Source: Thalassotalea nanhaiensis
GTDB taxonomy: Bacteria > Pseudomonadota > Gammaproteobacteria > Enterobacterales > Alteromonadaceae
Direction of reading: 5' to 3'
Length of the DNA stretch: 64,000 bases
Assembly: GCF_031583575.1 (NCBI RefSeq)
Contig: NZ_CP134146.1
Location: 124,001 to 188,000, forward strand
Shown: positions 10,614-64,000 of the stretch, piece by piece
How the letters are laid out: each line of letters begins with the position of its first letter
Numbering within the stretch: the stretch's first letter is position 1
Translations under genes and position numbers: made by a program
The notes under the pieces: model-generated
The model's input: the letters and a program-made list of their open reading frames with translations, nothing else
What the model was told of the DNA's origin: nothing
Database searches by the model: none

Positions 10614-10634
10614 CCTTAAGGTATAGGAAAGATT

Positions 10635-12404: not shown

Positions 12405-12434
12405 CCTAACAAACACACTTGTTAAATTTACTAT

Positions 12435-12459
12435 AAGCCGAACTTAGTTTCGGCTTTTT
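12435..12459 (+). terminator. Rho-independent terminator of the glg operon
   Basis: AAGCCGAA (12435-12442) pairs with TTCGGCTT (12449-12456) around a 6-base loop and is followed by a T run. It sits 30 bases after the amylase stop. Confidence 0.85.
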
Positions 12460-12535
12460 ACATTTTGGCAATTGATTTGTAATCTGAAGGCGCTTATGAG
12501 CGATAAGCGACGACCTTATTTAAGAAAAAACACAC

Positions 12536-12675
12536 CGTCATCCTGTGCGAGCCAAAGCGAGACACGGGACCTCCTGAAGTATGCTGAGGCTCTAAAATTA
12601 AGAATTTCAAACTTTTATAAGCACACTGTTACTCGAGGAGATACCGGATGTCGCTAGTGCTCCTCCGGTATGACG
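12536..12675. repeat. Palindromic intergenic repeat (REP/MITE-like), 140 bp
   Basis: The stretch begins CGTCAT and ends ATGACG (6-bp terminal inverted repeat) and contains an internal hairpin TACCGGA...TCCGGTA near the right end. Wording such as GTGCGAG...CGAGACACGGGA is typical of dispersed palindromic repeats in marine gammaproteobacteria. It fills most of the 317-base gap 12405-12721; a 61-codon open frame across it is not a convincing gene. Confidence 0.55.
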
Positions 12676-12721
12676 TATAATTATTAAATCACTTCCTAAA
12701 ACTGATGAATAAAAAGTTCTG

Positions 12722-13558
12722 CTATAAGTTAGTGCTTTTATATACATCCATATCTTCGGCATGCCATCTTTGGCTACGATTTAATATGGCTAATTGGATA
12801 AAAACACTAAATGGAACAATAAGCCAAATACTTTGGTTGCTGGTTTTTGCACCCATCATACCTAACAGGGAAAATATAAGGATAGCCGCTGCGATACCAA
12901 GTAAACTTCGTTGAACATCTTGGTTTCTTTTATTCGTTCTATCCTCATCTTTAATAAGCTTGTCATGATTTTTGCCGTATATGGCGACATATATACGATG
13001 AGCAAGCAACAAGTTGGTAACAACAAAAAGTGCTGATAACCCAAACTGCTTTGTTGTGCCAAGCTGCGTATTTGAAAAGATGATATTCAATGTGACTAGA
13101 GCAGATAAACATAATAGCGTTAGATGAATAAGCGAGATATGATCAAAGATACTACGAGCAACCAGGCTAAATTTTTTGGTGTTAACGGTGACCTTTTTTT
13201 TACGTTTTATTGCTGACAATTCCAATGTTATCAATGAATAAAGAGATGGCACCAGTTGAATAGCTGTACAAAATACCCACGTGGTAAATACATTGGTTTG
13301 CTTGCTTAGAATATTTGCAGAGAATAATAGATAACCAATAACAAATAGCGCGATGAGATCTAGTAATACCCTAACGGATAAGAGTGTACATTCCGTTTTT
13401 ATTGAATAGACATAAAATTTTGGATACTGGCTCGGCGGATATTTTTGAAAAAGCCTCATTTGTTGTTGTCCCCACCGAAACGGAGAGACAACAGAAATAA
13501 CCAGAGCTTGTACTAAAATTGCCAATAATATAATGGTTTCTGGTGTGATAACGGTCAT
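12722..13558 (-). CDS. Multi-pass membrane protein of unknown function
   Basis: 278 aa with about seven hydrophobic segments (near residues 8-28, 60-82, 92-116, 138-160, 172-196, 218-240 and 246-264) and no catalytic motif I recognise. A charged loop lies around residues 200-215. Its start codon is one base beyond the stop of the GntR-family regulator gene on the same strand, so the two are co-transcribed. YtrA-type GntR regulators usually sit in front of membrane export or ABC-transporter genes; here the partner is this unknown protein, plausibly a membrane sensor or stress protein. No function is claimed. Confidence 0.75.
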   Translation of the reverse strand: MTVITPETIILLAILVQALVISVVSPFRWGQQQMRLFQKYPPSQYPKFYVYSIKTECTLLSVRVLLDLIALFVIGYLLFSANILSKQTNVFTTWVFCTAIQLVPSLYSLITLELSAIKRKKKVTVNTKKFSLVARSIFDHISLIHLTLLCLSALVTLNIIFSNTQLGTTKQFGLSALFVVTNLLLAHRIYVAIYGKNHDKLIKDEDRTNKRNQDVQRSLLGIAAAILIFSLLGMMGAKTSNQSIWLIVPFSVFIQLAILNRSQRWHAEDMDVYKSTNL

Positions 13559-13559
13559 A

Positions 13560-13931
13560 TTAATTTTTCATAATAGCATTAAAACTATTTCTTATTTCAG
13601 AATCAATAGCACCAAATTTGCGTAGTTTTTGAATCGCTTCAGCTAATTCTTGTTCAACCTTAGATTGCATATTTTCATCTAGATGTTCGCTTGCCGTTGA
13701 ATTTATAAAAGTACCTCTAAAACCTTTTGAGACAATTACTTGATCACGTTCGAGTATTTTAAATGCTTTAGCTACCGTATTTGGGTTTACTTCTACTTCA
13801 TTGGCAATTTGTCTAATTGAGGGAAGCTGTGTGCCTACAGCTAATTCACCAGAGGCTACAGCTGCTTTAACCTGTTCAACAATCTGTTTATATATGGGGG
13901 TTGTCGAGTTTTCATCAATCGCAATATTCAT
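13560..13931 (-). CDS. GntR-family transcriptional regulator, YtrA type
   Basis: About 123 aa: an N-terminal winged helix (TPIYKQIVEQVKAAVASG, then LPSIRQIANEVEVNPNTVAKAF, a textbook GntR helix-turn-helix) plus a short C-terminal helical tail, the size of the YtrA subfamily. ATG 13931 is chosen over the longer open frame (to 13985) because AGGG lies six bases before it. First gene of a two-gene operon with the membrane protein downstream. A perfect 10-bp inverted repeat lies 70 bp upstream, in the region shared with the divergent gene at 14102, and is probably its own operator. Confidence 0.88.
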   Translation of the reverse strand: MNIAIDENSTTPIYKQIVEQVKAAVASGELAVGTQLPSIRQIANEVEVNPNTVAKAFKILERDQVIVSKGFRGTFINSTASEHLDENMQSKVEQELAEAIQKLRKFGAIDSEIRNSFNAIMKN

Positions 13932-14000
13932 TGTAAACCCTAGGATTCTTTCGCTTAATTTTTCTCTATTGCTTAAGCTTAGCACTTTTTTTTTGGTTGT

Positions 14001-14056
14001 ACTACTTGTAATCGTAATACAAGTAGTCTATTGTATTACTAGTACATGTAGTACAT
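14001..14056. promoter_or_regulatory. Probable YtrA-type operator between divergent genes
   Basis: ACTACTTGTA (14001-14010) and TACAAGTAGT (14018-14027) form a perfect 10-bp inverted repeat with a 7-base spacer. A second, weaker set of related half-sites (TATTACTAGTACATGTAGTACA) continues to about 14056. The position between a GntR-family gene (minus strand) and the small membrane protein gene (plus strand) suggests autoregulation and control of both directions. Confidence 0.6.
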
Positions 14057-14101
14057 CTCTTTAATAAGAGGCATATAACAGACAAATTTGAGGAGTCTAT
14101 G

Positions 14102-14299
14102 ATGTTTAACATGACAAAAAAGCAATGCAAATTACTAGGTGATGTAGGGGGTGGTGTTGGCATTTTAGTGTTGGCGTGGTTGCTGAAAGATGCAGATCCT
14201 GAAGGAAAACAAATTGGCATGATGACAGTTTTTTTTGCCATTTTAATACGTTTTAGCGGACCAAATTTTTTACGTTCAACAAATAGAAAGTGTAAGTAA
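14102..14299 (+). CDS. Small membrane protein
   Basis: 65 aa with two hydrophobic segments (around residues 14-26 and 40-52) separated by a charged DADPEGKQ turn, and a basic C-terminus. AGGAG at 14091-14095 is six bases before ATG 14102, which favours this start over the adjacent ATG at 14099. It is the first gene of a plus-strand group with the hydrolase downstream (11 bp gap) and lies divergent to the GntR-type regulator with the inverted-repeat operator between. Function unknown. Confidence 0.6.
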   Translation: MFNMTKKQCKLLGDVGGGVGILVLAWLLKDADPEGKQIGMMTVFFAILIRFSGPNFLRSTNRKCK

Positions 14300-14310
14300 G
14301 GGGAAAGATA

Positions 14311-14694
14311 ATGAATTTAATTAAATCAACTATGGTGATTGCCATTTTGACAAGTGTATTACTTAGTTTTGCTTCGTCAGCAGCAAATTTAGCAGGCCAA
14401 TGGAAAGGTAATCTCGAGATCGGACAACAATCGGTTCCGATAATTTTCAATGTTACTCAAGAATCCGATAAATTAAGTGCCACTATGGATAGTCCATTAC
14501 AAGGCGCAAAAGATATACCAGTTAAATCTGTTGAGGTGAATGGTAACAAAGTTGCTTTTAATATTGCCGTCGCTGGCGCGAGATACGAGGCAAGCTTTGA
14601 AGGTGGCAAGTTAATCGGAAATTGGAATCAAAGTGGTCAGTCTTTTCCTCTTCAAATGGAACAAGGTGCTACTGCTGCTGTAAAAAAAAACTAA
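14311..14694 (+). CDS. N-terminal part of an alpha/beta hydrolase, ended by a frameshift at A9
   Basis: 127 aa: a signal peptide (residues 1 to about 25, ending SSAA) followed by a small beta-rich domain beginning LAGQWKGNLEIG. This domain precedes the hydrolase domain in many secreted alpha/beta hydrolases. The frame ends at TAA 14692 just after a run of nine A (14682-14690). If read one base back at the run, translation continues directly into the catalytic domain in the next frame, giving one protein of about 473 aa. See the companion entry. Confidence 0.75.
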   Translation: MNLIKSTMVIAILTSVLLSFASSAANLAGQWKGNLEIGQQSVPIIFNVTQESDKLSATMDSPLQGAKDIPVKSVEVNGNKVAFNIAVAGARYEASFEGGKLIGNWNQSGQSFPLQMEQGATAAVKKN

Positions 14695-15731
14695 AACGCC
14701 CTCAAGAGCCTAAAGGAAAATTACCTTATCAAGAAAAAGAGGTAAGGTTTACCAATAAAAAGAGTGGTATTGAGTTAGCTGGTACCTTGAGTTTGCCAGC
14801 TAACCCTATTGCAGGCGTTATTCTTATCACAGGGTCTGGGCCGCAAGATCGAAATCAATTATTTATGGGACACCAAACGTTTCTTGTATTAGCTGATTAT
14901 TTAACAAGAAAAAATATTGCGGTACTACGATATGACGATCGCGGTGTTGGTCAGTCTCAAGGACAATTTGATGGTGCAACAAGTTATGACTTTGCTGATG
15001 ATGCAAGCAGTGCCATTGATTTTTTAAATGCTCAACCTGAATTACATAACCGCTTAGTTGGAATAATTGGCCACAGCGAAGGTGGATTGATTGCGCCAAT
15101 TGTTGCAACACAAAACTCTAAAGTCGACTTTATCACACTGTTAGCCGGGCCTAGTCGAAGTGGTCGATTTGTTTCAGAGAATCAAATAAAAAAGATATTG
15201 TTATCTAACGGAATGTCAAAAGATACCTCGACAAAGGGTAGCCAAATCACCAAAAGCCTCAATAAAAGCGTTATTCAATATGCTGACTTATCCAAGGATG
15301 ATTTAAAGCAAAAGCTAAAAACGGTGTATCAAACCAAGTGGCAACAACTTGATGATACATCACAAACACAATTACAGCGATTAGGTGGCGGGTCATTGCC
15401 TGAACCTCGGCTAAAGATGTTAGTAGGCGATTGGTATAAAGCATTTTTAACGCACCAGCCTGTCGACTATTTAACTAAGCTCAATATTCCAACATTGGCA
15501 TTATACGGAGATAAAGATGTGCAAGTTAGTGCAGAAGATCACGCGAAAGTGATGGAACACGCGTTAACGGAAAATGGCGTAAATCTCTCTAAAGTAGTTA
15601 TATTACCGAATCATAATCATATGTTTCAACGCTCTAAGACTGGTGCGATGACCGAATATCAGCATATTGAAGAAACGCTGTCGCTATTAACGTTAAGTAG
15701 CATTGCTGATTGGATTAGTGACTTGAAGTAA
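14622..15731 (+). CDS. Catalytic part of the split alpha/beta hydrolase
   Basis: The open stretch contains a complete alpha/beta hydrolase: oxyanion region LITGSGPQDRNQ, YDDRGVGQS, nucleophile elbow GHSEGG, an acid in LYGDKDVQVSAEDH and a histidine in PNHNHMFQ. No good start codon or ribosome site precedes it; real coding sense begins near 14688, where a -1 shift on the A9 run would join it to the signal-peptide part (VKKKLKRP across the junction). So it is either reached by slippage at the A run, or the gene is a fresh pseudogene, or one A is missing from the assembly. The substrate is unknown. Confidence 0.7.
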   Translation: MESKWSVFSSSNGTRCYCCCKKKLKRPQEPKGKLPYQEKEVRFTNKKSGIELAGTLSLPANPIAGVILITGSGPQDRNQLFMGHQTFLVLADYLTRKNIAVLRYDDRGVGQSQGQFDGATSYDFADDASSAIDFLNAQPELHNRLVGIIGHSEGGLIAPIVATQNSKVDFITLLAGPSRSGRFVSENQIKKILLSNGMSKDTSTKGSQITKSLNKSVIQYADLSKDDLKQKLKTVYQTKWQQLDDTSQTQLQRLGGGSLPEPRLKMLVGDWYKAFLTHQPVDYLTKLNIPTLALYGDKDVQVSAEDHAKVMEHALTENGVNLSKVVILPNHNHMFQRSKTGAMTEYQHIEETLSLLTLSSIADWISDLK

Positions 15732-15835
15732 TACCGCGGTGGCTTATCTAGGGAACTAAGGTTCTTTAGATTTTAGCAGCAGTGCTAAGCTTTAACTGAT
15801 TGACTCAAAATGGCACAAAGCTGCCGTAAACATGG

Positions 15836-15903
15836 ATTCCCGCCTCGGCTCGGGCATCCTGCTTCGCTCTACCTTCTCCATCCGTGGAGTCGTTCGCGGG
15901 AAT
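15836..15903. repeat. Palindromic intergenic repeat
   Basis: ATTCCCGC (15836-15843) is inverted at GCGGGAAT (15896-15903), continuing into TGACGGTG. The interior has GC-rich hairpin-forming sequence (TCCATCCGTGGAGTC). It occupies the gap 15732-16057 together with the promoter at 15969-16036. Confidence 0.55.
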
Positions 15904-15968
15904 GACGGTGTATTCCTACTTCTACGCAACTTCTAACCTTATCAATTTAGTTATGTTCACTTGTCCTT

Positions 15969-16036
15969 ATGTAAAGTATGCTTGACTTTGTTTTGTTTAA
16001 CGTCTATCTTAATTGAAAGTAAAATATACTTTACAT
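15969..16036 (+). promoter_or_regulatory. Promoter of the membrane protein/Xre pair flanked by an inverted repeat
   Basis: A good sigma70 promoter is seen: TTGACT (15982-15987), 17-base spacer, TATCTT (16005-16010). It is bracketed by ATGTAAAGTAT (15969-15979) and its exact inverse ATACTTTACAT (16026-16036). The arrangement suggests repression by the Xre-type product of the second gene. Confidence 0.65.
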
Positions 16037-16057
16037 TATGACAAGCGAGGTAGACTT

Positions 16058-16480
16058 ATGGATAAGCAGGAATCAGGACAAAATAATTGGGAAGCACGAA
16101 CCAAGAAAAACACAGTAAAGTTAGGCATTTGGACATTTGGTTGGGTGCTAACTACGGCCGTTACCGCATTCGCACCAAAGTTCTTATGGGACTTTAATAC
16201 CGTATTAACTGTTATTGCCGTGATTATTAATGTGTTGGTTGGTTTTGGCATGATCTTGGCTAACAGAGAGCATTTACGTGGCTTAGATGAAATGCAGCAA
16301 AAAATACAAACTGAAGCGATGGCGCTGTCATTAGGTGTGGGCTTAGTGCTTGGTTGCAGTTATGAACTTTTAGAAGATATTAAATTAATAACTTTTGAAC
16401 CAGAAATATCTCATTTGGTGATACTTATGTGTATTACTTACATGATTGGCATAATTAAGAGCGGAGCAAAATATCGATGA
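16058..16480 (+). CDS. Four-helix membrane protein paired with an Xre regulator
   Basis: 140 aa from ATG 16058 (GAGG eight bases upstream; the longer open frame from 16013 runs through the operator and is rejected). Four hydrophobic segments (about residues 22-40, 47-67, 88-104 and 115-132) with a polar LDEMQQKIQTEA stretch between the second and third. Its stop overlaps the start of the Xre-type gene by four bases (ATGA), so the two proteins are made together. Such membrane-protein/Cro-like pairs are common in bacteria, but their role is mostly unknown. Confidence 0.75.
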   Translation: MDKQESGQNNWEARTKKNTVKLGIWTFGWVLTTAVTAFAPKFLWDFNTVLTVIAVIINVLVGFGMILANREHLRGLDEMQQKIQTEAMALSLGVGLVLGCSYELLEDIKLITFEPEISHLVILMCITYMIGIIKSGAKYR

Positions 16481-16677
16481 AAAATCGCTTAAAAGTATTG
16501 CGCGCTGAACGAGACTGGACCCAGGCAGATCTTGCTAATGCACTAGAAGTATCAAGGCAAACCGTTAATGCCATCGAAAAAGGTAAGTTTGATCCAAGCT
16601 TACCATTAGCATTTAAAGCCGCTCGACTGTTTGAATTATCTATTGAGCAGATATTTCAGGATGAAGAGCAAAGATAA
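16477..16677 (+). CDS. Xre-family DNA-binding protein
   Basis: 66 aa, essentially one Cro/C1-type helix-turn-helix: LRAERDWTQADLANALEVSRQTVNAIEKGKFDPSLPLAFKAA split across helices 1-5, with the recognition helix SRQTVNAIE. This short form (YozG/HTH_3-like) typically autoregulates an operon with a small membrane protein, as here. The 4-bp overlap with the upstream gene indicates coupling. Its 3' end overlaps the convergent esterase gene by 38 bp. Confidence 0.88.
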   Translation: MKNRLKVLRAERDWTQADLANALEVSRQTVNAIEKGKFDPSLPLAFKAARLFELSIEQIFQDEEQR

Positions 16678-17578
16678 ATTCAAGCGGAATATGCAGGCGC
16701 TTACTCCAAGCCTGTTCGCTGTGATTTTCCCCTTTAAAAAATAAGCTTTGCCATTGCTGTTTTGGATACTCTTGCGTAAATAAAGTATCAACTTGCTGTT
16801 GAAGCACAGGGTACATGGCATCTAACGTAGCATCGCCATGGTCAAAGTAAATTTTGTGATCTGTAAGTGTCGGTAGTTTCACTTTGATGTAATTAAGAAA
16901 TTGTTGAAATAGGATTTTATCTTTGGCAAACGCGCCTGGCCAATGAGTTGACATGCAAATAGCACCGGCAAACTCATTTGGATATTGCATTAAGCCATAC
17001 CAAGAGATTAATCCCCCCATACTTGAACCCGCTAAATAGCGATGTTTACCACCTTTTTTTACAGAATAATTAGCGTCAATAAAAGGCACGACTTCAGTGA
17101 CGATAAATTCTAAATACTTATCTGAATACACTTTAGTGTTAAACAATGGCAGATCTGCACTTCTTTCAAGTTGGTACATTTGTGCTTGTTGCTGTTTGCT
17201 TAATTTCTCGAATGGTTGTTGCGGGAAAAATTCACTGTGACGGTTTTTCACCCCATTAGGGATCGCCACAACAATAAAAGGTCGAACTTTTTGTTGTTCA
17301 ATCAAGCTGCCAGCTACTTCATCAACCATCCATTCTTGCTTATTCCAAGTGATGTTAGCATCAAAAAGCATGCGGCCGTCATGCATGTAAAGTACATCAT
17401 ATTTTGAATTTTCTGAGTAACCAGGTGGTAACCAAACATCGATGTATCTTGAGCCAATTAACTTGGATTTAAATGGTTCAATACGCTCAATTGTTCCTTT
17501 GTGCACCACCGGGATCGGATCTGATGCAAGGCAATTGAACGTAATCGCGACGAGTAATAATGACAACCATCTATTCAT
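16640..17578 (-). CDS. Secreted alpha/beta-fold esterase (putative esterase/Fes-like family)
   Basis: 312 aa with a signal peptide (MNRWLSLLLVAITFNCLAS, about 19 residues). The fold signature is that of the esterase D/enterochelin-esterase-like group: DVWLPPGY, VLYMHDGRMLFD, nucleophile elbow GSSMGG (Ser about residue 190), an acid in YFDHGDATLDAMY and a histidine in KGENHSEQAW. It is likely periplasmic. Last gene of the minus-strand set halogenase, reductase, MFS carrier, esterase (26 bp after the MFS gene), so probably part of the glucan locus. Substrate not readable. Confidence 0.82.
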   Translation of the reverse strand: MNRWLSLLLVAITFNCLASDPIPVVHKGTIERIEPFKSKLIGSRYIDVWLPPGYSENSKYDVLYMHDGRMLFDANITWNKQEWMVDEVAGSLIEQQKVRPFIVVAIPNGVKNRHSEFFPQQPFEKLSKQQQAQMYQLERSADLPLFNTKVYSDKYLEFIVTEVVPFIDANYSVKKGGKHRYLAGSSMGGLISWYGLMQYPNEFAGAICMSTHWPGAFAKDKILFQQFLNYIKVKLPTLTDHKIYFDHGDATLDAMYPVLQQQVDTLFTQEYPKQQWQSLFFKGENHSEQAWSKRLHIPLEFIFALHPEISAQ

Positions 17579-17604
17579 AGTTTTTAATCTTAAATTTACC
17601 GATA

Positions 17605-19026
17605 TTATTTTTTATGCTCTTTAACTTGGCTCCAGCACAATGCTGAAACAGTTAAGGCAATTCCACATAAGATGAAAATGGCGCTTTTGTCATTTGTTTG
17701 AGAAATAAACAAACCGACACCCAAGCTAACCAACAACTGCGGAATAACTACCGATAAGTTAAATAAGCCCATGTACATGCCCATTTTATTTTGGTCAATT
17801 TTCTCCGACATGATGGCAAACACTAAACTGATCACTGCTGACCAACCTATCCCTAAAATTGCCATCAAAAAGTACAGGGTATATTCTGAATGCCCCAAAA
17901 AGGCTACTAAAAAATAGCCTATAGCCATAGACGCAATACAATAGGTGTGCACCTTTACCCGGCCAAATTTTGTTGCCAAAGGCTCGAGCAGTAATGTTGG
18001 TAATAATGCCGACACAGCACTCAAGACTAGAAAGCTTATTGAAATTATTTTTCCCAGTTCATCATCAGCAATACCGCCCATTTTGTCTTGTAAAAATGCA
18101 AAAATGAACACAAACATAGTTTGAATACCAATCCAGCTAAACGAGTGCGCGGCTAAAATTTTTCGAAAACCAACCAGGCCTGCTTCCTGCTCTGATTTAT
18201 CATCTTCTTTCGCTTTGATGGTTTGTATTACCCAAACCAAAGTGAGTAATACACAGATAAATTCAGCATAATAATTTTCAACTGTTATGCCCGATAATTG
18301 GCGCCCCATGGCATAGATGTCATATATGATAAAACCCCAGAGCGGCTTTATGTTGATCATAATATCTTTAAATGACAGTGACTCACTCGCAACGGTGCGT
18401 TCACTAACGGCCAATTCTTTTGGCTCGGTGATGAAAAAAGGCGGGAAAATAGACAACACCAGCACTAATGCAGCGCCAAAATAAATTAAAACAAAATTAC
18501 CCCAAATTGCACCGATCGCGTAGGCTAAAACCCCGAACGTACCTGAAATGGTTTGCATCCAGGTATAACCAAGCGTTCTTTTTTCACCTTCAGGTGTCAC
18601 ATCGGCAATAATAGAGCGAGTAGGGTTAAAGCCAATATTGATTGATAAATCCAGAGTTAAGGCAATGGCAATAGCCACGGCCAGAATAGCTTCAATGCCA
18701 AGGCTTTTTGATACAATATCAATGTTTGGCAACGCCAACAGCATTAACCCGGCCAAAACACCGCCAATTAAAATAAACGGTCTGCGACGACCATTCCAAA
18801 ACCAAACATTGTCAGAAATAATACCGATAATTACTTGCCCTAAGATGCCCGCAATTGGTCCGGCAGCCCAAACCAAACCTACTTCGTGAATATCCAACCC
18901 ATATTGAGTGGTTAATATCCAACTTAACGCTGAAATTTGCACTGATAAGGCAAATCCCATTGCGGTAGAAGGCAAGCTAAGCAGCGCATAAAAACGCTTA
19001 CTTAGATTTTGTTGTATTGCTAGCAT
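17605..19026 (-). CDS. MFS sugar transporter (SLC45/GPH-like)
   Basis: About 473 aa with twelve hydrophobic segments. The loop GIISDNVWFWNGRRRPFILIGG after helix 2 matches the GRRRPF signature of SLC45/GPH-like carriers for sucrose and maltose, and the second MFS protein at 29997 has the same motif. It probably moves a malto-oligosaccharide or glucose across the inner membrane. ATG 19026 is preferred because GGGGA lies directly before it; the ATG at 19038 overlaps that ribosome site. It sits between aldo/keto reductase and esterase genes on the same strand. Confidence 0.85.
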   Translation of the reverse strand: MLAIQQNLSKRFYALLSLPSTAMGFALSVQISALSWILTTQYGLDIHEVGLVWAAGPIAGILGQVIIGIISDNVWFWNGRRRPFILIGGVLAGLMLLALPNIDIVSKSLGIEAILAVAIAIALTLDLSINIGFNPTRSIIADVTPEGEKRTLGYTWMQTISGTFGVLAYAIGAIWGNFVLIYFGAALVLVLSIFPPFFITEPKELAVSERTVASESLSFKDIMINIKPLWGFIIYDIYAMGRQLSGITVENYYAEFICVLLTLVWVIQTIKAKEDDKSEQEAGLVGFRKILAAHSFSWIGIQTMFVFIFAFLQDKMGGIADDELGKIISISFLVLSAVSALLPTLLLEPLATKFGRVKVHTYCIASMAIGYFLVAFLGHSEYTLYFLMAILGIGWSAVISLVFAIMSEKIDQNKMGMYMGLFNLSVVIPQLLVSLGVGLFISQTNDKSAIFILCGIALTVSALCWSQVKEHKK

Positions 19027-49996: not shown

Positions 49997-50881
49997 ATGG
50001 ATATAAAATCTTTACAAGTGTTTACTCACTTGGCCAATACCTTACATTTTGGCCAAACTGCGCATGCTCATCATGTCAGTCCATCAACACTGTCTAGAAT
50101 GATCCAGCGCATTGAAGAAGAGGTGGGCTGTAAGTTATTGCAGCGCGACAATCGAACTGCCGTACTTACTAAAGCCGGGGTGAAATTTGAAGCTTACGCC
50201 AATCAGCAGTTGCAACAATGGCAAGAGTTTCAAGGCGATATTCTCGCTGAGCAACCACAGCTTACTGGTAAACTAAGCATTTATTGTTCAGTAACTGCTG
50301 CTTACTCACATTTGCCGCAATTATTAGATGGTTTTCGTCGTTTATATCCACAAATTGAAATTATGCTCGAAACCGGTAATGCCGAAGATGCCGTTGGTAA
50401 GGTGATTGACCGACAGGTAGATTTCGCCATTGCAGCACATCCAGAGTCGTTAGCAAAAAGTTGTTATTTTCATGCTATTGCGCAAATACCGGTATCTATT
50501 ATTGCGCCATTAGTTGATTGCCAGGTCAAGCAGCAGTTAGAGCAAAGACAAGTTAACTGGCAAGACATTCCGATAATATTGCCAGAGCATGGTCCTGCAC
50601 GTAATCGCTTTGAAAAATGGTATCGTCAAAAAGGCGAGGGCAAACCGAACATTTATGCCACAGTAGCAGGTCATGAAGCGTTGGTGTCTATGGTTGCTTT
50701 AGGGTGTGGTGTTGGCGTTGCACCGGAAGTTGTATTAGAAAACAGCCCGGTGAAAGACAGGGTACAAAGACTCACCGTACCCTCGGCAATAAAACCCTTT
50801 GAACTGGGTATTTGTTGCTTGAAAAAACGAATGAACGAGCCGGTGATCAATGCATTTATGGCAACAGTGTTAGAAAGCTAA
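49997..50881 (+). CDS. ilvY: LysR-type activator of ilvC
   Basis: 294 aa (E. coli IlvY 297). N-terminal LysR helix-turn-helix (LQVFTHLANTLHFGQTAHAHHVSPSTLSRMIQRIEEEVG) with the HFGQTA variant typical of IlvY, then the substrate-binding domain (ATVAGHEALVSMVALGCGVGVAPE). Divergent from ilvC, as in E. coli; expected to activate ilvC on binding acetolactate and to repress itself. Its 3' end overlaps the convergent comM gene by four bases. Confidence 0.92.
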   Translation: MDIKSLQVFTHLANTLHFGQTAHAHHVSPSTLSRMIQRIEEEVGCKLLQRDNRTAVLTKAGVKFEAYANQQLQQWQEFQGDILAEQPQLTGKLSIYCSVTAAYSHLPQLLDGFRRLYPQIEIMLETGNAEDAVGKVIDRQVDFAIAAHPESLAKSCYFHAIAQIPVSIIAPLVDCQVKQQLEQRQVNWQDIPIILPEHGPARNRFEKWYRQKGEGKPNIYATVAGHEALVSMVALGCGVGVAPEVVLENSPVKDRVQRLTVPSAIKPFELGICCLKKRMNEPVINAFMATVLES

Positions 50882-52410
50882 CCGGAGATGCTCGACGTTA
50901 AGTGCTGAATTAACCTGTCCATAGCTCGATACGATAACGCTTCAACTAAGTGTTCGCGTTTGATTTGCTTCTCTGTTTTTAAATCTGCAATGGTGCGGGC
51001 TATTTTTAATAACTTGTGATGCGCTCTTGTTGAAAGGCCAAGCTTTTCAACAGCTAGTTCTAGAAACTCACAATCAGCATCATTTAAATAGCAATGCTGC
51101 TTTAACTCCGGACTACTTAAATGGGCATTTGCTTTACCTTGTCTGGCTAATTGGATTTGACGACAGTTATGCACTCGCGCTCGTATCACTTCGCTAGTTT
51201 CGTTATTATGTTCGTTATTATTCCACAGCCCTTTCGGCAGTCGGCTCACTTCTAATTGAATGTCGATGCGGTCAAGAAAGGGGCCAGACAGTTTATTTAA
51301 ATAACGCAGTATTTGTTCAGGTGTACTACGTTTATCCAAATAAAATCCTGTGGGGCTAGGGTTCATTGCGGCCACAAGTTGAAACTTTGCCGGATACGTT
51401 GTTTTGTGCATTGCACGGGAGATTGTTACTTCCCCAGATTCCATCGGCTCACGCAGTACATCCAGTACTTTTCTATCGTATTCTGGAAGTTCATCTAAAA
51501 ATAGTACGCCATTGTGAGCAAGTGATATTTCACCAGGTACTGGCTGACTGCCGCCGCCCACTAATGCTGCCGATGAGGCGGTATGATGCGGCGCGCGAAA
51601 AGGTCGCTTTAGCCAATGCTGATTATTAATCGCTGTGGTGCAAATAGAATGAATGGCCGCAGTTTCTAGAGACTCTGAGGTTGTCATCTGTGGCAAAATA
51701 CCCGGTAGTCTGCTGGCAAGCATGGTTTTTCCGGTTCCAGGAGGGCCAATAAACAGTAAATTATGGCTGCCGGCCGCCGCCAGTTCCAATGCTCTTTTGG
51801 CTAATGGTTGACCCATAACGTCGGCAATGTCTTTGATCGGGTCATGCGGTATGTCTGTGCTTAAGTCTGGTTCTTCATAGTTGATTAATGGCAGAGGTTG
51901 CTGGCGGGCAAAATGAGGAAACAGTTGACTCAAGTGTTGCAGGGCAATTATCTGAGCGTGCTCAACTCTGCTGGCGAGTTGGGCATTACCAAGTGGCAGT
52001 ATTAACGTACGCTGGCTATCTCTGCTTGCTATGGCAATTGGAATTTCACCTACAATGTTTCTAAGCTCTCCTGATAACGCTAACTCTCCGGCAAATTCAT
52101 AATTGTTTAATTCAGTATTAGGGATTTGATTGGAGGCGGCGAGAATGCCAACGGCAATAGGCAAGTCAAAGTGACCACCTTCTTTGGGTAAGTCAGCCGG
52201 AGCAAGGTTTACTACAATTTTTTGACAAGGAAATTCAAAGCCACAATTAATCAGCGCGCTGCGAACTCTATTCTTTGATTCTTTAACAGAGGTTTCTGCT
52301 AGTCCGACAATTTGAAAGCCCGGTAAACCGGCACTTAAGTGAATTTCAATTGATACAAGGGGAGATTCCAGCCCTATTCGGGCACGAGTATAGATAGATG
52401 CGAGAGCCAT
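50878..52410 (-). CDS. comM: ComM/YifB family AAA ATPase
   Basis: 510 aa (E. coli YifB 506). N-terminal Lon-protease-like fold (ARIGLESPLVSIEIHLSAGLPGFQIVGLAE, LAPADLPKEGGHFDLPIA), an AAA+ domain with Walker A FIGPPGTGKTMLASRLPG (near residue 218) and Walker B LFLDELPEY, and a C-terminal Mg-chelatase-like domain (SYRAMDRL). ComM is a hexameric helicase that drives branch migration in natural transformation. Its location beside the ilv leader matches E. coli yifB-ilvL. The gene is intact, which matters because comM is a known target of some Tn7-like elements. Confidence 0.95.
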   Translation of the reverse strand: MALASIYTRARIGLESPLVSIEIHLSAGLPGFQIVGLAETSVKESKNRVRSALINCGFEFPCQKIVVNLAPADLPKEGGHFDLPIAVGILAASNQIPNTELNNYEFAGELALSGELRNIVGEIPIAIASRDSQRTLILPLGNAQLASRVEHAQIIALQHLSQLFPHFARQQPLPLINYEEPDLSTDIPHDPIKDIADVMGQPLAKRALELAAAGSHNLLFIGPPGTGKTMLASRLPGILPQMTTSESLETAAIHSICTTAINNQHWLKRPFRAPHHTASSAALVGGGSQPVPGEISLAHNGVLFLDELPEYDRKVLDVLREPMESGEVTISRAMHKTTYPAKFQLVAAMNPSPTGFYLDKRSTPEQILRYLNKLSGPFLDRIDIQLEVSRLPKGLWNNNEHNNETSEVIRARVHNCRQIQLARQGKANAHLSSPELKQHCYLNDADCEFLELAVEKLGLSTRAHHKLLKIARTIADLKTEKQIKREHLVEALSYRAMDRLIQHLTSSISG

Positions 52411-59228: not shown

Positions 59229-60419
59229 GTGTCACTTGAAAAAGTAGATGTAGTAGTTATTGGGGCCGGAGCAGCCGGCCTTATGTGCGCTATTAACGCA
59301 GGTTACCGTGGTCGTAGTGTTGCGGTAGTCGACATGGGTAAAAAAACGGGCAGAAAAATCATTATTAGTGGTGGCGGTCGTTGTAATTTTACCAATCAAC
59401 ACGCCGAGCCAAGTAACTATCTTTGTAGTAATCCTCACTTTGTTAAGTCAGCTCTTAGTCGCTATACCCAATACGATTTTATCGATATGGTTGAACGACA
59501 CGGAGTTGAATACCATCATAAAACGTTAGGGCAATTATTTTGTGATGATTCAGCCCATAATATTGTTGATATGTTACTTACTGAATGTGACTGGGCCGGA
59601 GTGGGTATTCACTTACAGTCTGAAGTTCATAAAGTAAGTAAGACTGATGATGGCTATATAGTTACAACCAACGGTAAGGACTTTCAGTGCCAATCGTTAG
59701 TGGTCGCATCTGGTGGTTTAACCATGCCAAAACTTGGTGCTACCCCGATAGGTTATAAAATTGCTGAACAATTTGGTTTAAATGTTTTACCTACTTGCGC
59801 CGCTTTGGTTCCTTTCACTTTGCATGATCAAGACAAACAACGTTTTGATGGATTATCGGGCATTAGTGTCGATAGTATTGTTACCAGTGAAGATGGCACC
59901 AGTTTTAGAGAAAATATTTTATTTACTCATCGCGGCTTATCTGGTCCGGCAATATTGCAAATATCCTCTTTTTGGCAAGCAGGGCAAGTCGTTAGTATTA
60001 ATTTAATACCTGATTATGACCTTGAACAGCGTTTGCAGGATATTCGTCAAGAAAGTCCACAACGCGCGTTAAAAACAGCCCTAAGCCATTTGCTTCCTAA
60101 GCGCTTAATTGAGCGTTTATATGATGCAAATGAATTGCCTGATAAACCAATGAACCAATTAACTCATCAAGAGTATAAAGACATTGCTAACTACTTCCAT
60201 AATTGGCAAATAAAACCAAATGGCACAGAGGGCTATCGTACTGCTGAAGTGACTCTGGGCGGCGTCGACACCGATGAGTTATCATCAAAAACCATGGAAA
60301 GTAAAAAAGCCCCAGGCTTATATTTTATTGGCGAAGTGGCTGATGTTACCGGTTGGCTAGGTGGTTACAATTTCCAATGGGCTTGGTCAAGTGGTTGGGC
60401 TGCAGGGCAGGTCGCATAG
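59229..60419 (+). CDS. yhiN: YhiN/HI0933-family NAD(P)/FAD-dependent oxidoreductase
   Basis: 396 aa flavoprotein of the HI0933 family (E. coli YhiN 400). N-terminal FAD loop VVIGAGAAGLMCAINAG, KKTGRKIIISGGGRCNFTN, and the C-terminal FAD motif GEVADVTGWLGGYNFQWAWSSGW. Starts with GTG 59229. Physiological reaction unknown. The C-terminal codons appear to serve as the attachment site of the Tn7-like element whose end begins three bases after the stop; the reading frame is left intact, as expected for TnsD/TniQ-type targeting of a conserved gene end. Confidence 0.92.
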   Translation: MSLEKVDVVVIGAGAAGLMCAINAGYRGRSVAVVDMGKKTGRKIIISGGGRCNFTNQHAEPSNYLCSNPHFVKSALSRYTQYDFIDMVERHGVEYHHKTLGQLFCDDSAHNIVDMLLTECDWAGVGIHLQSEVHKVSKTDDGYIVTTNGKDFQCQSLVVASGGLTMPKLGATPIGYKIAEQFGLNVLPTCAALVPFTLHDQDKQRFDGLSGISVDSIVTSEDGTSFRENILFTHRGLSGPAILQISSFWQAGQVVSINLIPDYDLEQRLQDIRQESPQRALKTALSHLLPKRLIERLYDANELPDKPMNQLTHQEYKDIANYFHNWQIKPNGTEGYRTAEVTLGGVDTDELSSKTMESKKAPGLYFIGEVADVTGWLGGYNFQWAWSSGWAAGQVA

Positions 60420-60422
60420 TCT

Positions 60423-60501
60423 TGTGTAATGACAAAAAAGATTGCCCGTAAGCAAAAAAGTTTGCCCGTTAGAGCTATAAATGACAAAAAAGTTTGCCCG
60501 T
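60423..60501 (+). repeat. Transposon end with three TnsB-type binding repeats
   Basis: Terminal TGTGTAATGA, then repeats GACAAAAAAGATTGCCCGT (60431-60449), GCAAAAAAGTTTGCCCGT (60452-60469) and GACAAAAAAGTTTGCCCGT (60483-60501). Aligned spacing is 20 and 32 bases. Multiple near-identical sites of about 20 bp inside the terminus are how TnsB recognises Tn7 ends. Confidence 0.88.
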
Positions 60502-60588
60502 AATGGTGTGGTTTTATAGTAATCATCATTAAATTAAGAACTTATAAATATACTATAATTAAAGTAGGCTAACTAGTAGGAAGTCAGT

Positions 60589-61416
60589 ATGCCTAAAGGT
60601 AGAAAATTAGAATCCATTGCGGATTATCAAAGAGCCCTAAAAAACAAATATGGTTTAGGGCAAGGTAGTAAATATAAGCCCTGGCTTAGGGTACAAGATG
60701 TAAAGTCTAGAGGCACTAGGTCCCAGATATTTGGTCGGAAGACAAATAGAGAACATCATCTAATGTCTTTGCTCGAATCCGAGCTTTTTTATTTAATTGA
60801 ATTCTCAGATCGGGTTACCGATATCAGAGAACAGTTTCCTATTTTACCGTTAAATTATTCTCAGAAAGTCGCAAAGACATTAGGTGTAGAACACCCTAAA
60901 CACCCTAAAACCAAAGAACCAATTGTTTTAACTACAGACTTACTTTTGACTGTCGACTCTGAATCAGGGCAATATTTTCATGCCATCTCCGTAAAGCCTG
61001 AGGAAGAAGCTGGTGTAGATAGAGTCCTTCAAAAAGTAGAAATTGAAAGAATATGCTGGGAATTAATGGGAGTAAAGTTTAGCTTTTACGTTGGAGATGA
61101 TTTAAGAAGAATCCAAAGTGAAAATATTGCTTGGGCTACATTTCCATTTAGAAAGGGGCCTTCATATTTTTCTTTTGAGCTTGTTACGTCGGCTTTATCT
61201 TTATTGAAGAAAAAACAATATTACAAAGAAGATTTATGTGAAAAATTTATTAAGAATAATATAGTTAATAGAGATGAGTCTCTCTTATTGTTAAAGTACC
61301 TAATTAGTGAAAAATTTATTGAGGTTGATTTGAATTATTCACTTGGTGAGTCTGATGTAATAGACATAAGAAACATAGCCTTCGAACAGCGGAGGTTTGC
61401 ATATGAAAATTTTTAG
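60589..61416 (+). CDS. tnsA: TnsA endonuclease of a Tn7-like transposon
   Basis: 275 aa (Tn7 TnsA 273). It cuts the 5' ends of the element during cut-and-paste transposition. The restriction-enzyme-like active site is intact: Glu63 (HHLMSLLESELF, aligning with Tn7 E63), Asp117 (VLTTDLLLTV; Tn7 D114) and Lys136 (AISVKPEE; Tn7 K132). DIREQFPILP is also shared with Tn7. A C-terminal helical domain follows. ATG 60589 has AGGA(AG) upstream. Its 3' end overlaps tnsB by 14 bases, indicating coupling. Confidence 0.95.
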   Translation: MPKGRKLESIADYQRALKNKYGLGQGSKYKPWLRVQDVKSRGTRSQIFGRKTNREHHLMSLLESELFYLIEFSDRVTDIREQFPILPLNYSQKVAKTLGVEHPKHPKTKEPIVLTTDLLLTVDSESGQYFHAISVKPEEEAGVDRVLQKVEIERICWELMGVKFSFYVGDDLRRIQSENIAWATFPFRKGPSYFSFELVTSALSLLKKKQYYKEDLCEKFIKNNIVNRDESLLLLKYLISEKFIEVDLNYSLGESDVIDIRNIAFEQRRFAYENF

Positions 61417-63541
61417 GAACAGTGTTTGGCTTTGTTTAAACTTTGAATTGCTCGATTGTTGCCGTTATAGAGTTTTAGATATTTTTCCTACCAATGATTG
61501 CATAATACTTTTTAAAGTTGATACTGATTCGGTCGCTGTTCGTCCGATAGCTATATCATTAGAAAGTTTTAAAAGTGGATTGAAAAACAAAGAAATAACA
61601 AGCTCTGAGTATGTTTTGCCTAATTTTATGTTACAGAGTGAAGATAATGCCTCTACTGACCACATTGCGAAGAGAGATAGTAATTACGAAATTATAAAAC
61701 CTCTAATTTCAGATTCTGAATTTCTATTTAACTACGCTACTAAGAAAAGATTCTCACAGTTGGCTCAATATTCTCAACAGATTCGCGTTGACAGGAAAAG
61801 CATTACAAGGCTTTTGACTAAATATTGGCTCTACGGACAAAGTATAATGTCGTTGCTACCCGCATATTCAAACAGTGGGGGATTTGGAAAGGATAAAACG
61901 GTCTCAAATAAAGATCTTGGTGCCCCAGTAAATCCTCGAACTCTCGCAGTAGAAAGATATAAAAAATTTATACTCACTGACGACATAAAGGCTAAATTTA
62001 AGCTATCTCTAAAAAAGTATTACCTAAAAGAGACAGGAATAAGTTTAGTTAAAACCTATGAACAATTTCTAAGGGATCATTTCGAGGATGAGCTCAGAGT
62101 ATCAAATCTAGAAGGTCGCCCTCCTTATATTCCAACAATAAAACAGTTCAGATATTGGACAAATAAGCTTTTTTCTAAAGATGAAATTACTTTGAAAAGA
62201 ACCTCTGAAAATGACTATTTAAGGAACAAAAGAGGAGTGTTAGGTAGCGTTATAGACAAAAGCTTTTTACCTGGTACCACCTTCGAAATAGACGCAACAG
62301 TAGCTGATGTTCATATTGTTTCTGAATTTGGAACTCAATATGTGCTGGGTAGGCCGACAATCTACATGATAGCTGATAGAGCAAGTAGGATGATCGTTGG
62401 TATGCATGTATCTCTTTTTCATGCATCTTGGAGAGCTGCCAGACAAGCGATTGCGAATTGTTTTATTGAAAAAACTCAATATTGTCGTGAATTTGGTGTG
62501 AACATTTCATCTCCTGACTGGCCATGTTTTCATGTTCCGAGAAATTTGATGTGTGATAACGGCGAAATGATTGGTTTAAAGCCGAAAGATGTAGTAACGC
62601 CAATGACTTCTTTGTTGTTTGGTCCGCCCTACCGACCTGAGACTAAAGGTGTTATTGAAAGAAGTTTTAAGATTATTAATGATGATAGCTTGCATGAACT
62701 TTTAGGGAATACTCGTTTGGGGACGGTAATCAGAGGTCGAAGAGATCCAAGAAAAGATGCTTGTCACACACTTAAGGAAGTCACAACCATTATCATTAAG
62801 TCAGTTCTAGAACATAATAGGAGCATTTTGAAAGAGCTTGGGTATTCGAGCTCGTTATTAGTTGAGAACGATTTAACTCCAACTCCCGCAAATTATTGGA
62901 AGATTCATCTAGCTAAACAAAAACAAGATCTTAAATTAGCCAATGAAGATGAAGTCATTGCAGAAATTCTTCCACCAGCCGAAGTTAGTATGACTAGAAA
63001 TGGCATTGAGTTTAATGGTCTGTATTACTCATGCTCTGAAGTACTTGAAAAAAGCTTGGCTTCAATAGCTCGGACTAGTGGAAGGTGGAGGCTCGAAGCC
63101 AGAATAGATGAAAATACCACGAACTATATTTATGTAAAGCTAGAACCGAAAGGTAAGTTTTTACGTTGTGAACTTTTATCTCGTAGCCGGATGTTTGCTA
63201 ATAAGACAATGATTGATGCTGACTTTATGCAAGACTGGGTTGAAATTAAGAAAGAGTTAAACCCCGTTAGCATAGAGTCAATAGATGATATGAAACAGCG
63301 CAAGCAATCGAAGAAGGAGGCAAAAAAACGACTTAAGGCTAGTCCTAAAATACCATTTTCACAAAAACGAAAAAATATTAGGCAAAAAAGAAAAGATGAA
63401 CTTCTTAGTACAACTAATGTGATTACCTCTGATAACAGGTGTGAAGCAAAAGTTATAACACAGCAATCTACTGTTGCTGAGGTAGTAGCGCTGCCAATAG
63501 GTAGGGCTAGGAAAAATAGGAGTAGTAATGAAAACGATTAA
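61403..63541 (+). CDS. tnsB: TnsB transposase (DDE) of a Tn7-like transposon
   Basis: 712 aa (Tn7 TnsB 702). DDE recombinase that joins 3' ends to target DNA and binds the end repeats. Catalytic residues: Asp297 (FEIDATVADV), Asp385 (MCDNGEMIG) and Glu419 (RPETKGVIERSF), with 34 positions between the second Asp and Glu. The C-terminus is very basic (residues about 630-675) as in TnsB, where it contacts TnsC. ATG 61403 has GGAGG seven bases upstream; an in-frame TTG at 61397 is less likely. Stop overlaps the tnsC start by 14 bases. Confidence 0.95.
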   Translation: MKIFRNSVWLCLNFELLDCCRYRVLDIFPTNDCIILFKVDTDSVAVRPIAISLESFKSGLKNKEITSSEYVLPNFMLQSEDNASTDHIAKRDSNYEIIKPLISDSEFLFNYATKKRFSQLAQYSQQIRVDRKSITRLLTKYWLYGQSIMSLLPAYSNSGGFGKDKTVSNKDLGAPVNPRTLAVERYKKFILTDDIKAKFKLSLKKYYLKETGISLVKTYEQFLRDHFEDELRVSNLEGRPPYIPTIKQFRYWTNKLFSKDEITLKRTSENDYLRNKRGVLGSVIDKSFLPGTTFEIDATVADVHIVSEFGTQYVLGRPTIYMIADRASRMIVGMHVSLFHASWRAARQAIANCFIEKTQYCREFGVNISSPDWPCFHVPRNLMCDNGEMIGLKPKDVVTPMTSLLFGPPYRPETKGVIERSFKIINDDSLHELLGNTRLGTVIRGRRDPRKDACHTLKEVTTIIIKSVLEHNRSILKELGYSSSLLVENDLTPTPANYWKIHLAKQKQDLKLANEDEVIAEILPPAEVSMTRNGIEFNGLYYSCSEVLEKSLASIARTSGRWRLEARIDENTTNYIYVKLEPKGKFLRCELLSRSRMFANKTMIDADFMQDWVEIKKELNPVSIESIDDMKQRKQSKKEAKKRLKASPKIPFSQKRKNIRQKRKDELLSTTNVITSDNRCEAKVITQQSTVAEVVALPIGRARKNRSSNEND

Positions 63542-64000
63542 GGCGATATATAATGAAGCCATTCTACCTGAACATAAAGGTAACCCTTTAATTGAGGCTC
63601 TTCCTCCTAAATTACCTTGGCTAAATGTTATGGAGCTGTTTAGTCATTACCCTGACTATGCCGAAGAAATATCTGACCATCCTGATCCATTGGTTCGAGA
63701 TGAGTATTTGGTAAGGATAGACCGTTTAAGGCAACCTTTAACCGATTATCAGACATGCTTTAGGGCAATAGAAAGAAGTCTCAAAAATGGCTATTCTACA
63801 AAAAATCCATTAACACCTACTACTGCGCAATATTTGCATTATTTTGTCGATGAACAGCCAGAAATTGAGCCAGATTCAGGACGATTTACACCTAAAGGAG
63901 AGGGCCTTACTCTAATTGGAGAGAGTGGAATTGGGAAAACAACAATGCTAGAGCAAGTGTTGAGTTATTTTCCGAATGTCATTGTTCACGACGGCTATAA
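63528..64000 (+). CDS. tnsC: TnsC AAA+ regulator, 5' part only
   Basis: ATG 63528 opens a frame that runs off the window end (157 complete codons). The N-terminal part contains ALPPKLPWLNVMELFS and ends just after the Walker A motif LIGESGIGKTTMLEQ (near residue 135), matching TnsC, the ATPase that links target selection (TnsD/TniQ or TnsE) to the TnsAB transposase. The gene overlaps tnsB by 14 bases. The missing part would hold Walker B and sensor motifs. Confidence 0.9.
   Translation, partial: MKTIKAIYNEAILPEHKGNPLIEALPPKLPWLNVMELFSHYPDYAEEISDHPDPLVRDEYLVRIDRLRQPLTDYQTCFRAIERSLKNGYSTKNPLTPTTAQYLHYFVDEQPEIEPDSGRFTPKGEGLTLIGESGIGKTTMLEQVLSYFPNVIVHDGY

What the first reader, a model, noticed from the sequence alone, without database searches (positions are those of the whole stretch)
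60423..64000. Tn7-like transposon inserted at the 3' end of yhiN; cargo and targeting module lie beyond the window
tnsA, tnsB and tnsC with intact catalytic residues and a recognisable terminus begin three bases after the yhiN stop. I recall yhiN being described as a target for one family of Tn7-like elements, distinct from glmS and comM; comM here (50878-52410) is intact. Such elements carry defence systems, metal resistance and sometimes CRISPR-Cas modules used for guided insertion. This is the likeliest place for an undescribed system, but only about 3.6 kb is visible.
Basis: partly seen in the sequence, partly recalled or inferred. Interest (0 to 1): 0.85.

Follow-up and report, generated by a model that had tools for sequence, protein, structure and literature searches.

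The report
Tn7-like transposon with two target-choosing proteins
A complete 17 kb jumping DNA element sits right behind the gene yhiN, and its relatives suggest that one of its targeting proteins finds that safe chromosomal spot while a second, fast-changing one steers it next to the sites plasmids use to stay stable, which would explain how such elements spread.

Summary
Confirmed and extended. The element is complete: 16,919 bp (window 60423 to 77341, past the window end), perfect 5-bp duplication AGTCT overlapping the yhiN stop, TnsB-type sites at both ends, tnsA-tnsB-tnsC, a TnsD-type TniQ ("TniQ1"), a second short TniQ ("TniQ2"), and cargo (subtilase-Rhs pair, PDC-S06 defence candidate). 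No CRISPR or TnsE was found. It belongs to the known yhiN-targeting (Tn6230-like) kind, whose targeting a 2024 review calls unknown in molecular detail.

Comparative results: in 27 of 27 close relatives with enough DNA, yhiN lies directly before tnsA, so TniQ1 is the likely yhiN selector. Plasmid-borne relatives carry TniQ2 too, mostly annotated "hypothetical protein". Of ten plasmid sites read, five are at maintenance sequences: three at or near tyrosine-recombinase core sites (34-35 bp away in two backbones), two in repeat arrays of partition loci. Two share a palindrome of unknown role; three are unclassified. The TniQ2 tree follows the plasmid target better than the TniQ1 tree (7/7 versus 4/7 nearest neighbours; small sample).

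Reading: TniQ1 homes to yhiN; TniQ2 is an exchangeable selector for plasmid maintenance sites. The first part is well supported; the second is inferred and untested at the bench.

The parts
59229..60419 (+). yhiN (HI0933-like), host gene at whose 3' end the element sits; intact to its TAG stop
   Evidence: Pfam PF03486 E 1.4e-97
60418..60422 (.). left copy of the 5-bp target duplication AGTCT, overlapping the yhiN stop codon; right copy at L002:18342-18346 (window scale 77342-77346)
60423..60501 (+). element end next to tnsA: terminus TGTGTAATGACA and three TnsB-type sites (60433-60449, 60453-60469, 60485-60501); the other end, with two inverted sites, closes the element at window scale 77341
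60589..61416 (+). tnsA, 275 aa, Tn7 TnsA-type endonuclease; E63, D117, K136 invariant in 7 of 7
   Evidence: PF08722 E 1.2e-13; PDB 1f1z E 3.4e-41
61403..63541 (+). tnsB, 712 aa, DDE transposase; D297, D385, E419 invariant in 7 of 7
   Evidence: PDB 7pik E 6.8e-90
63528..64000 (+). tnsC start (472 aa, AAA ATPase), runs to window scale 64946. Beyond the window, window scale = L002 position + 59000: TniQ1/TnsD L002:5903-7312, TniQ2 L002:7389-8510, subtilase with RHS repeat 9456-10766, Rhs protein 10769-14725, 101-aa ORF 14712-15017, PDC-S06 protein 15158-17728, 88-aa ORF 18004-18270 (not scanned against families)

Best explanation
This is a complete cut-and-paste Tn7-like transposon of the yhiN-homing (Tn6230-like) kind. 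Shown from sequence: TnsA and TnsB with conserved catalytic residues, TnsC, both ends, a 5-bp duplication, insertion just after the yhiN stop codon. Inferred: TniQ1 (469 aa, TniQ core plus TnsD-type C-terminal half) reads the last codons of yhiN and calls TnsC and TnsAB to insert 0-5 bp after the stop, a harmless home. Inferred, less sure: TniQ2 (373 aa, TniQ core with a second CxxC-type zinc motif but no long C-terminal extension) is the selector of the second pathway, the one that puts the element on conjugative plasmids. It directs insertion beside plasmid maintenance sites (core sites of plasmid tyrosine recombinases, partition repeat arrays), either by reading DNA or by docking on the plasmid's own recombinase or ParB. 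TniQ2 takes the place that TnsE has in Tn7, and swapping TniQ2 changes which plasmids can be boarded.
For: Homing: yhiN lies directly 5' of tnsA in 27 of 34 distinct close relatives (26, plus L115); the other 7 contigs stop before the spot. Terminus 0-5 bp after the stop in the 30 of 36 rows where the motif could be parsed, taking nine bases before the ACAA motif as the start; four rows repeat a genome. Second selector: TniQ2 found at E <= 1e-20 in 30 of 37 genomes or records, 14 of 21 if the 16 that gave rows to the profile are left out; TnsE in 2 of 33, both on other contigs than the yhiN element. Plasmid copies: 286 records with a TniQ1 relative, 242 typed conjugative. TniQ2 seen in 10 of 12 plasmid stretches searched, L164-L173. 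Sites: core CTACTTATTAAAATGTA..TTTGAAAA(A)GTAG 34-35 bp before the element in L166, L169, L189 (IncC) and L176, L190 (another backbone); the same core stands 64 and 87 bp before tyrosine-recombinase genes in two plasmid stretches without tns genes. L167 lies after sopB, 61 bp past the start of the third palindrome TGGGACCACGGTCCCA; L174 has the same TnsA, TnsB and TnsD accessions in an IncHI1B repeat array and L168 is a different element in that array. Duplications ATGCC, CGGGA, ATTAA, TCCCC. TniQ2 tree joins L165, L166, L169 (support 1.000) against the TniQ1 tree. Fold: TniQ2 model matches TniQ and TnsD over residues 1-274.
Against: Three of ten plasmid sites are unclassified (L178/L187, L164, L171), two (L172/L177 and L173/L180) lie at a palindrome of unknown role, and the Proteus/Providencia core is judged by eye. 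I picked the plasmids from capped lists for diversity; they are not a random sample. The duplication search succeeded in 3 of 10 plasmid stretches, L169 and L190 being added by eye from later stretches. The target-versus-tree test rests on 7 elements; L165 and L166 join in both trees, and L167 and L168 TniQ2 share only 23% identity (support 0.849). TniQ2 was not found at E <= 1e-20 in 7 of 37 records, nor in the cut stretches L176 and L178 (the L176 record holds one far away), and I did not check for all that it lies in the same element. No plasmid copy close to the window's own element with a resolved target was found: the Alteromonas plasmid L164 is unclassified and its TniQ2 carries a stop codon. 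The tyrosine-recombinase role of the IncC core is inferred from neighbours. The TniQ2 model is of middling quality (pLDDT 66.8) and its last 80 residues are not resolved. A broken second copy in Yersinia ruckeri (L122) has no yhiN within its stretch.
Confidence: 0.6

Rival explanations
1. TniQ2 is not the plasmid selector. TnsABC, with or without TniQ1, is drawn to any DNA that is bent or held by a protein, and plasmid partition or recombination complexes are simply such places.
For: Sites are of several unlike sequences; Faure 2023 (Figure 7 legend, passages) proposes DNA-bending proteins, tyrosine recombinases among them, acting in trans. TniQ1 of L114, L080 and L079 is 83-88% identical to that of L167 while TniQ2 of L080 and L114 is not close, so TniQ2 is not bound to one TniQ1.
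Against: Target class follows the TniQ2 tree (7/7; 2 of 210 labelings as good) better than the TniQ1 tree (4/7; 30 of 210), and TniQ2 is kept in 30 of 37 records at E <= 1e-20.
Confidence: 0.25
2. Survivor bias: the element lands anywhere on plasmids, and only insertions in non-coding gaps such as those beside maintenance genes persist.
For: No annotated gene is seen to be cut at the sites read closely (the plasmid gene tables are incomplete).
Against: Distances repeat to the base: 34 or 35 bp from the same core in two backbones; two elements with TniQ1 41% identical sit one base apart in IncC; two elements with different end sequences sit at one IncHI1A position; two hit one repeat array.
Confidence: 0.1
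3. TniQ2 is a relic or a regulator of TniQ1 with no targeting role of its own.
For: Mean pairwise identity of TniQ2 is 20.4% against 38.5% for TniQ1 over 19 elements; one TniQ2 has an internal stop (L164), one has two (G422).
Against: Zinc-ligand type cysteines and the start region are kept across 17 aligned rows; TniQ2 is found in 30 of 37 records.
Confidence: 0.1
4. A CRISPR-associated transposon that lost or hides its guide module.
For: A short TniQ beside a TnsD is the arrangement of dual-selector CASTs.
Against: No cas effector among Pfam and PADLOC matches of the element's larger proteins, no array-like repeat.
Confidence: 0.03

Closest known systems
Tn6230 and other yhiN-targeting Tn7-like elements (E. 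coli yhiN-yhiM hotspot; V. cidicii VC01; pco/sil element)
   Same: Insertion beside yhiN, tnsABCD plus a tniQ/tnsD selector in VC01 (PMC12671221 section 9), defence or metal cargo; a pco/sil element moved from a plasmid to the yhiN-yhiM gap in E. coli J53 (PMC8417528 passages), and a sil-bearing plasmid element with TnsD 29% identical falls in the family here (L173)
   Different: No Tn6230 sequence, and not the pMG101 element itself, was compared. The passages seen give no role to a second TniQ and no plasmid target rule
Tn7
   Same: TnsABC, TnsD-type selector, 5-bp duplication, two-pathway life
   Different: Home is yhiN not glmS, insertion 0-5 bp after the stop (Tn7: normally 23 bases from the end of glmS, as told in PMC8417528), no TnsE found, a second TniQ instead
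Tn5053 family, res site hunters
   Same: TniQ-linked targeting of plasmid resolution sites (PMC11406308 passages)
   Different: Tn5053 family mostly has one TniQ and lacks TnsA (same passages); here TnsA is present, there are two TniQ proteins, and sites are tyrosine-recombinase cores and partition arrays (that Tn5053 sites are serine-resolvase sites is recalled)
Dual tniQ-tnsD elements and Tn6022 with TnsF (Faure 2023)
   Same: Small TniQ plus larger TnsD; a tyrosine-recombinase-like protein used as selector partner
   Different: No TnsF-like gene was noticed (none was searched for); the proposed partner is the plasmid's own protein. That paper holds tnsD but is not among the papers with yhiN and has no Tn6230

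Membership tests
Tn7-like transposon | tnsB with tnsC and a TniQ/TnsD protein | tested here: met
Tn7-like transposon | paired ends with repeated TnsB-type sites and 5-bp target duplication | tested here: met
Tn6230-like, yhiN-targeting | tnsA end immediately 3' of yhiN | tested here: met
   27 of 27 testable close relatives alike, the window's own included
Tn6230-like, yhiN-targeting | sequence relationship to Tn6230 itself | not tested
   no Tn6230 record was identified
Tn7 proper | TnsE and glmS attachment site | tested here: not met
   no TnsE_C match in G000; site is yhiN
CRISPR-associated transposon | cas effector genes and array within the ends | tested here: not met
   small ORFs were not scanned
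Tn5053 family | no tnsA; single tniQ | tested here: not met
   tnsA and two tniQ present
TniQ protein family (for TniQ2) | TniQ core fold and zinc motif | tested here: met
   PADLOC TniQ E 5.3e-7; Pfam TniQ E 1.4e-4 but below its cut-off; model of a relative (L093) matches TniQ/TnsD over residues 1-274, Z 6.2 at best

The most novel reading that the evidence does not exclude
TniQ2 proteins form a swappable family of selectors that recognise plasmids by their maintenance machinery, docking on ParB/SopB-bound centromeres or on tyrosine-recombinase core complexes, so the transposon boards plasmids by the very feature that makes a plasmid persist.
Probability: 0.42. Interest if true: 0.8.

Novelty: new variant of a known kind. 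Interest (0 to 1): 0.6.

Why it matters
The 2024 review lists yhiN targeting as unknown in molecular detail. The comparison names a gene for each pathway and gives short, exact target sites, so both can be tested in E. coli K-12. If right, it adds a CRISPR-free, TnsE-free route onto conjugative plasmids, would help explain the presence of such elements on IncC, IncHI and IncF plasmids, and offers protein selectors with compact target sites.

Tried and rejected
Rejected: CRISPR guidance; TnsE as plasmid selector (2 of 33, other contigs). L115 looked like an exception (no tns genes or yhiN within 10 kb); fetching more DNA showed yhiN, then tnsABC, then a gap of cargo size, then TniQ1.

Led nowhere: the empty site in the window's own lineage could not be shown base by base, because the sequence right of the element has no match near yhiN in relatives beyond one weak translated hit; gene order shows that orthologues of genes further right lie about 7 kb from yhiN in G005. 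PDB profile search with TniQ2 gave only marginal hits (best relevant: TnsD 8glu, E 0.015). A class-wide TnsA search found 5 of 369 genomes at E <= 1e-30, too few to use. First core regex missed three loci through a wrong A count and was corrected. One search was an idle script.

Dropped or incomplete: L178/L187, L164 and L171 plasmid sites unclassified; L177, L179 and L181 repeat sites of other loci; L188 was not analysed further. Further TniQ2 hits (CP021463, CP049309 and others) were not placed in the trees. L087, L088, L090, L105, L107, L112 are the same genomes as L076, L077, L079, L081, L082, L067 and were counted once. Two fragments were left out of the homing count: L050 (G125, 127 aa of TniQ1, surroundings not examined) and L122 (Yersinia ruckeri, broken second copy without yhiN in its stretch). 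The genome scan kept the best 80 of 201 relatives. The cargo was only named; the 88-aa ORF was not scanned.

Literature: not in print is claimed only within these searches of the held library: Tn7-like + yhiN, Tn6230 (12), yhiN + tnsD, target selectors + Tn7 + TniQ, Tn7-like + plasmid partition + TniQ, Tn7-like + resolution sites + TniQ, Tn7-like + sopC, four of five of transposon, TniQ, conjugative plasmids, target selector, multimer resolution, Tn7-like + yhiM, Tn5053 + res site + TniQ. No preprints are held. The original Tn6230 and yhiN papers cited by the review were not read.
Full report
What is there. The window is bases 124001-188000 of a single 4.31 Mb contig, so the part beyond the window could be read (L002 position + 59000 = window scale). 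ORFs, Pfam and PADLOC give, in order after yhiN: tnsA, tnsB, tnsC, a 469-aa TnsD-type protein (Pfam TnsD E 4.4e-14, TniQ E 1.4e-10) called TniQ1 here, a 373-aa second TniQ called TniQ2 (Pfam TniQ below cut-off; PADLOC TniQ E 5.3e-7), then cargo: a subtilase with one RHS repeat (436 aa), an Rhs protein (1318 aa), an overlapping 101-aa ORF, and an 856-aa ATPase matching the defence candidate PDC-S06 (E 7.7e-283). The names TniQ1 and TniQ2 are mine.

Boundaries. The element starts TGTGTAATGACA and ends in its imperfect inverse (1 of 12 bases differs), with AGTCT on both sides; its length is 16,919 bp. The left AGTCT overlaps the yhiN TAG, so yhiN is unharmed. Three TnsB-type sites stand at the tnsA end and two at the far end, 5 matches against 0.08 expected. 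A DNA search with part of tnsB finds one copy in the genome. TnsB aligns with Tn7 TnsB over nearly its whole length and TnsA with Tn7 TnsA, and the residues that I recall as catalytic are invariant in 7 of 7 relatives.

Home site. A scan of named genomes with the TniQ1 alignment kept the best 80 of 201 relatives, 78 distinct loci. With the loci of the order-wide search (42 of 394 genomes with any match), I took 34 distinct close relatives, the window's own included, after removing genomes counted twice; two fragments (L050, L122) were left out. yhiN is directly 5' of tnsA in 26 and in L115 once more DNA was fetched; seven contigs end too early. The gap from yhiN stop to tnsA start is 81-170 bp in those 26, and the terminus lies 0-5 bp after the stop in the 30 of 36 rows that could be parsed (four rows are repeats and one is the distant L066; the six not parsed are L106 and five distant loci). 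Hosts include Pseudoalteromonas, Shewanella, Vibrio, Alteromonas, Marinobacter and Yersinia. The nearest held relatives of the window's genome have yhiN without tns genes. The end of yhiN encodes GYNFQWAWSSGWAAG, rich in residues with one or two codons, which would keep the DNA alike across hosts; this is my inference.

More distant Tn7-like elements also sit at yhiN: G015 (tnsB 35% identical), a Kordiimonas (32.5%), three Marinobacter records and a metagenome bin labelled Rhodopirellula (27-30%, tnsA 746-843 bp after yhiN). Whether they share the selector was not settled.

Second pathway. The same family is common on plasmids: 286 plasmid records have a TniQ1 relative, 242 typed conjugative. 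In the first four plasmid loci read, a TniQ2 relative is present in all four, right after TnsD (L164) or as the last large gene at the far end (L165-L167), each annotated 'hypothetical protein'. Of eight further plasmid stretches searched, six contain one (L168-L173; in L169 cut by the stretch, in L171 short) and two do not (L176 and L178, both cut soon after TniQ1); the L176 record has one elsewhere. A profile search finds TniQ2 at E <= 1e-20 in 30 of 37 genomes or records; 16 of those 37 had supplied rows of the profile, and among the other 21 it is found in 14. In L078 TniQ2 ends 76 bp before the element end. TnsE was found in 2 of 33 genomes or records, on other contigs than the yhiN element.

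Where the plasmid copies sit. Duplications show true insertions: ATGCC in pNDM-KN (L166), CGGGA in an IncFIB plasmid (L167), ATTAA in an IncHI1B plasmid (L168); the script found a convincing pair in these 3 of 10 stretches. TCCCC in a Klebsiella plasmid (L190) and TGCCC around L169 were read by eye. The plasmids were chosen by me for diversity. I count ten distinct sites. (1) IncC: L166, L169 and L189; L166 and L169 have TniQ1 41% identical; all lie 34-35 bp from CTACTTATTAAAATGTA..TTTGAAAAAGTAG; an IncC plasmid without element shows the uninterrupted site. (2) L176 and L190, an IncFIB/IncFII backbone: the same core at 34 bp in otherwise different DNA; their TnsB protein accession equals that of L166. 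Matches of 32-42 bases to this core recur in other plasmids, and in the two that I opened it stands 64 and 87 bp before a tyrosine-recombinase gene. I take it for a multimer-resolution site of the ResD/rfsF sort (name recalled). (3) L165 and L170, Proteus and Providencia: a sequence TTACTACATTAAACGTATATTTAACCGAGTAA of dif-like look near the start of a tyrosine-recombinase gene; the likeness is by eye. (4) L167 and L175: after sopB (SoPB_HTH, E 4.6e-35 in L167), beyond three palindromes TGGGACCACGGTCCCA, which I recognise as sopC-like. (5) L168 and L174: inside or at the edge of a direct-repeat array; in L168 it lies beside parAB (ParB E 1.5e-12), and L174 carries the L167 element in reverse orientation relative to the array, its far end not read. 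That the array is the centromere is inferred from its place. (6, 7) sil-type and related elements: L173 and L180 on IncHI2A, L172 and L177 on IncHI1A, near a palindrome TTAGTAAAGNCNTTACTA(A/T); plasmids without element show what looks like the same place by gene order, upstream of a 400-aa coiled-coil protein. Its role is unknown. (8-10) L178/L187, L164 and L171 are not classified. So five of ten sites are maintenance sequences, two share a palindrome, three are open.

TniQ2 follows the target. Over 19 elements, mean pairwise identity is 38.5% for TniQ1 and 20.4% for TniQ2, TniQ2 being lower in 171 of 171 pairs. TniQ1 of L114, L080 and L079 is 83-88% identical to that of L167, yet only L079 has a TniQ2 near that of L167 (71%; the next are 23% and less): the gene has been exchanged. 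In the TniQ2 tree the three core-site elements join (support 1.000) and L167 with L168 fall in one clade (0.849); in the TniQ1 tree L165 and L166 still join (0.945) but L169 goes with the L167 group (0.986). Among the seven plasmid elements with a classed target, the nearest TniQ2 has the same target class in 7 of 7 (2 of 210 labelings do as well), the nearest TniQ1 in 4 of 7 (30 of 210). This is a small and hand-classed sample.

How TniQ2 may work. The predicted fold of a relative (L093; pLDDT 66.8; the last 80 residues unresolved) matches TniQ and TnsD over residues 1-274, Z 6.2 at best, and these stand above the unrelated rows. Faure 2023 suggests that a small TniQ without long extension marks elements that use a further selector, and draws DNA-bending proteins including tyrosine recombinases acting in trans as an evolutionary stage (PMC10293859 abstract and passages). 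[quoted passage not shown] By analogy I propose that TniQ2 recognises plasmid maintenance complexes; direct DNA reading is the alternative. This step is not shown.

Known or new. The element is a new member of a known kind. What I did not find in the searches listed is a target rule for its plasmid pathway or a role for its second TniQ. A laboratory event in print fits: a pco/sil element left a plasmid for the yhiN-yhiM gap in E. coli J53 (PMC8417528 passages); those authors read the site as attTn7-like.

Noticed in passing
L071-L074 (G014, G026, G021, G042), just after the yhiN stop: A different repeat, (A)CGAAGACA, stands right behind yhiN in four genomes, with an inverted copy some 60 bp on in two (L072, L074); in L073 and L074 large genes on the opposite strand follow. 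Possibly a second kind of element at the same site.
   Followed up: partly
L075:13209-13381 (G013): A duplicated fragment of the yhiN 3' end (about 91% identical in protein) lies 12 kb downstream of the intact gene, as integrase-type islands leave behind.
   Followed up: no
L002:9456-15017: Cargo: a secreted-looking subtilase with an RHS repeat followed by an Rhs protein and an overlapping 101-aa ORF with hydrophobic stretches, perhaps a toxin with its protease and immunity protein.
   Followed up: no
L067, L115/L198, L168: Other genes (for example TIR and CBASS-type genes in L168) lie between tnsC and TniQ1, while TniQ2 follows TniQ1, so the two selectors can be parted from tnsABC together.
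   Followed up: partly
L190:7243-11172: TniQ1 is split by an IS66 insertion in this Klebsiella plasmid copy, while the TniQ2 gene is annotated whole.
   Followed up: no
L002:8511-9455: About 950 bp without a long ORF between TniQ2 and the cargo; nature unknown.
   Followed up: no
L123 and L132-L135: Distant Tn7-like elements (Kordiimonas, Marinobacter and a bin labelled Rhodopirellula) are also beside yhiN, the latter two with a longer gap and AGACAA repeats: perhaps independent use of yhiN.
   Followed up: partly
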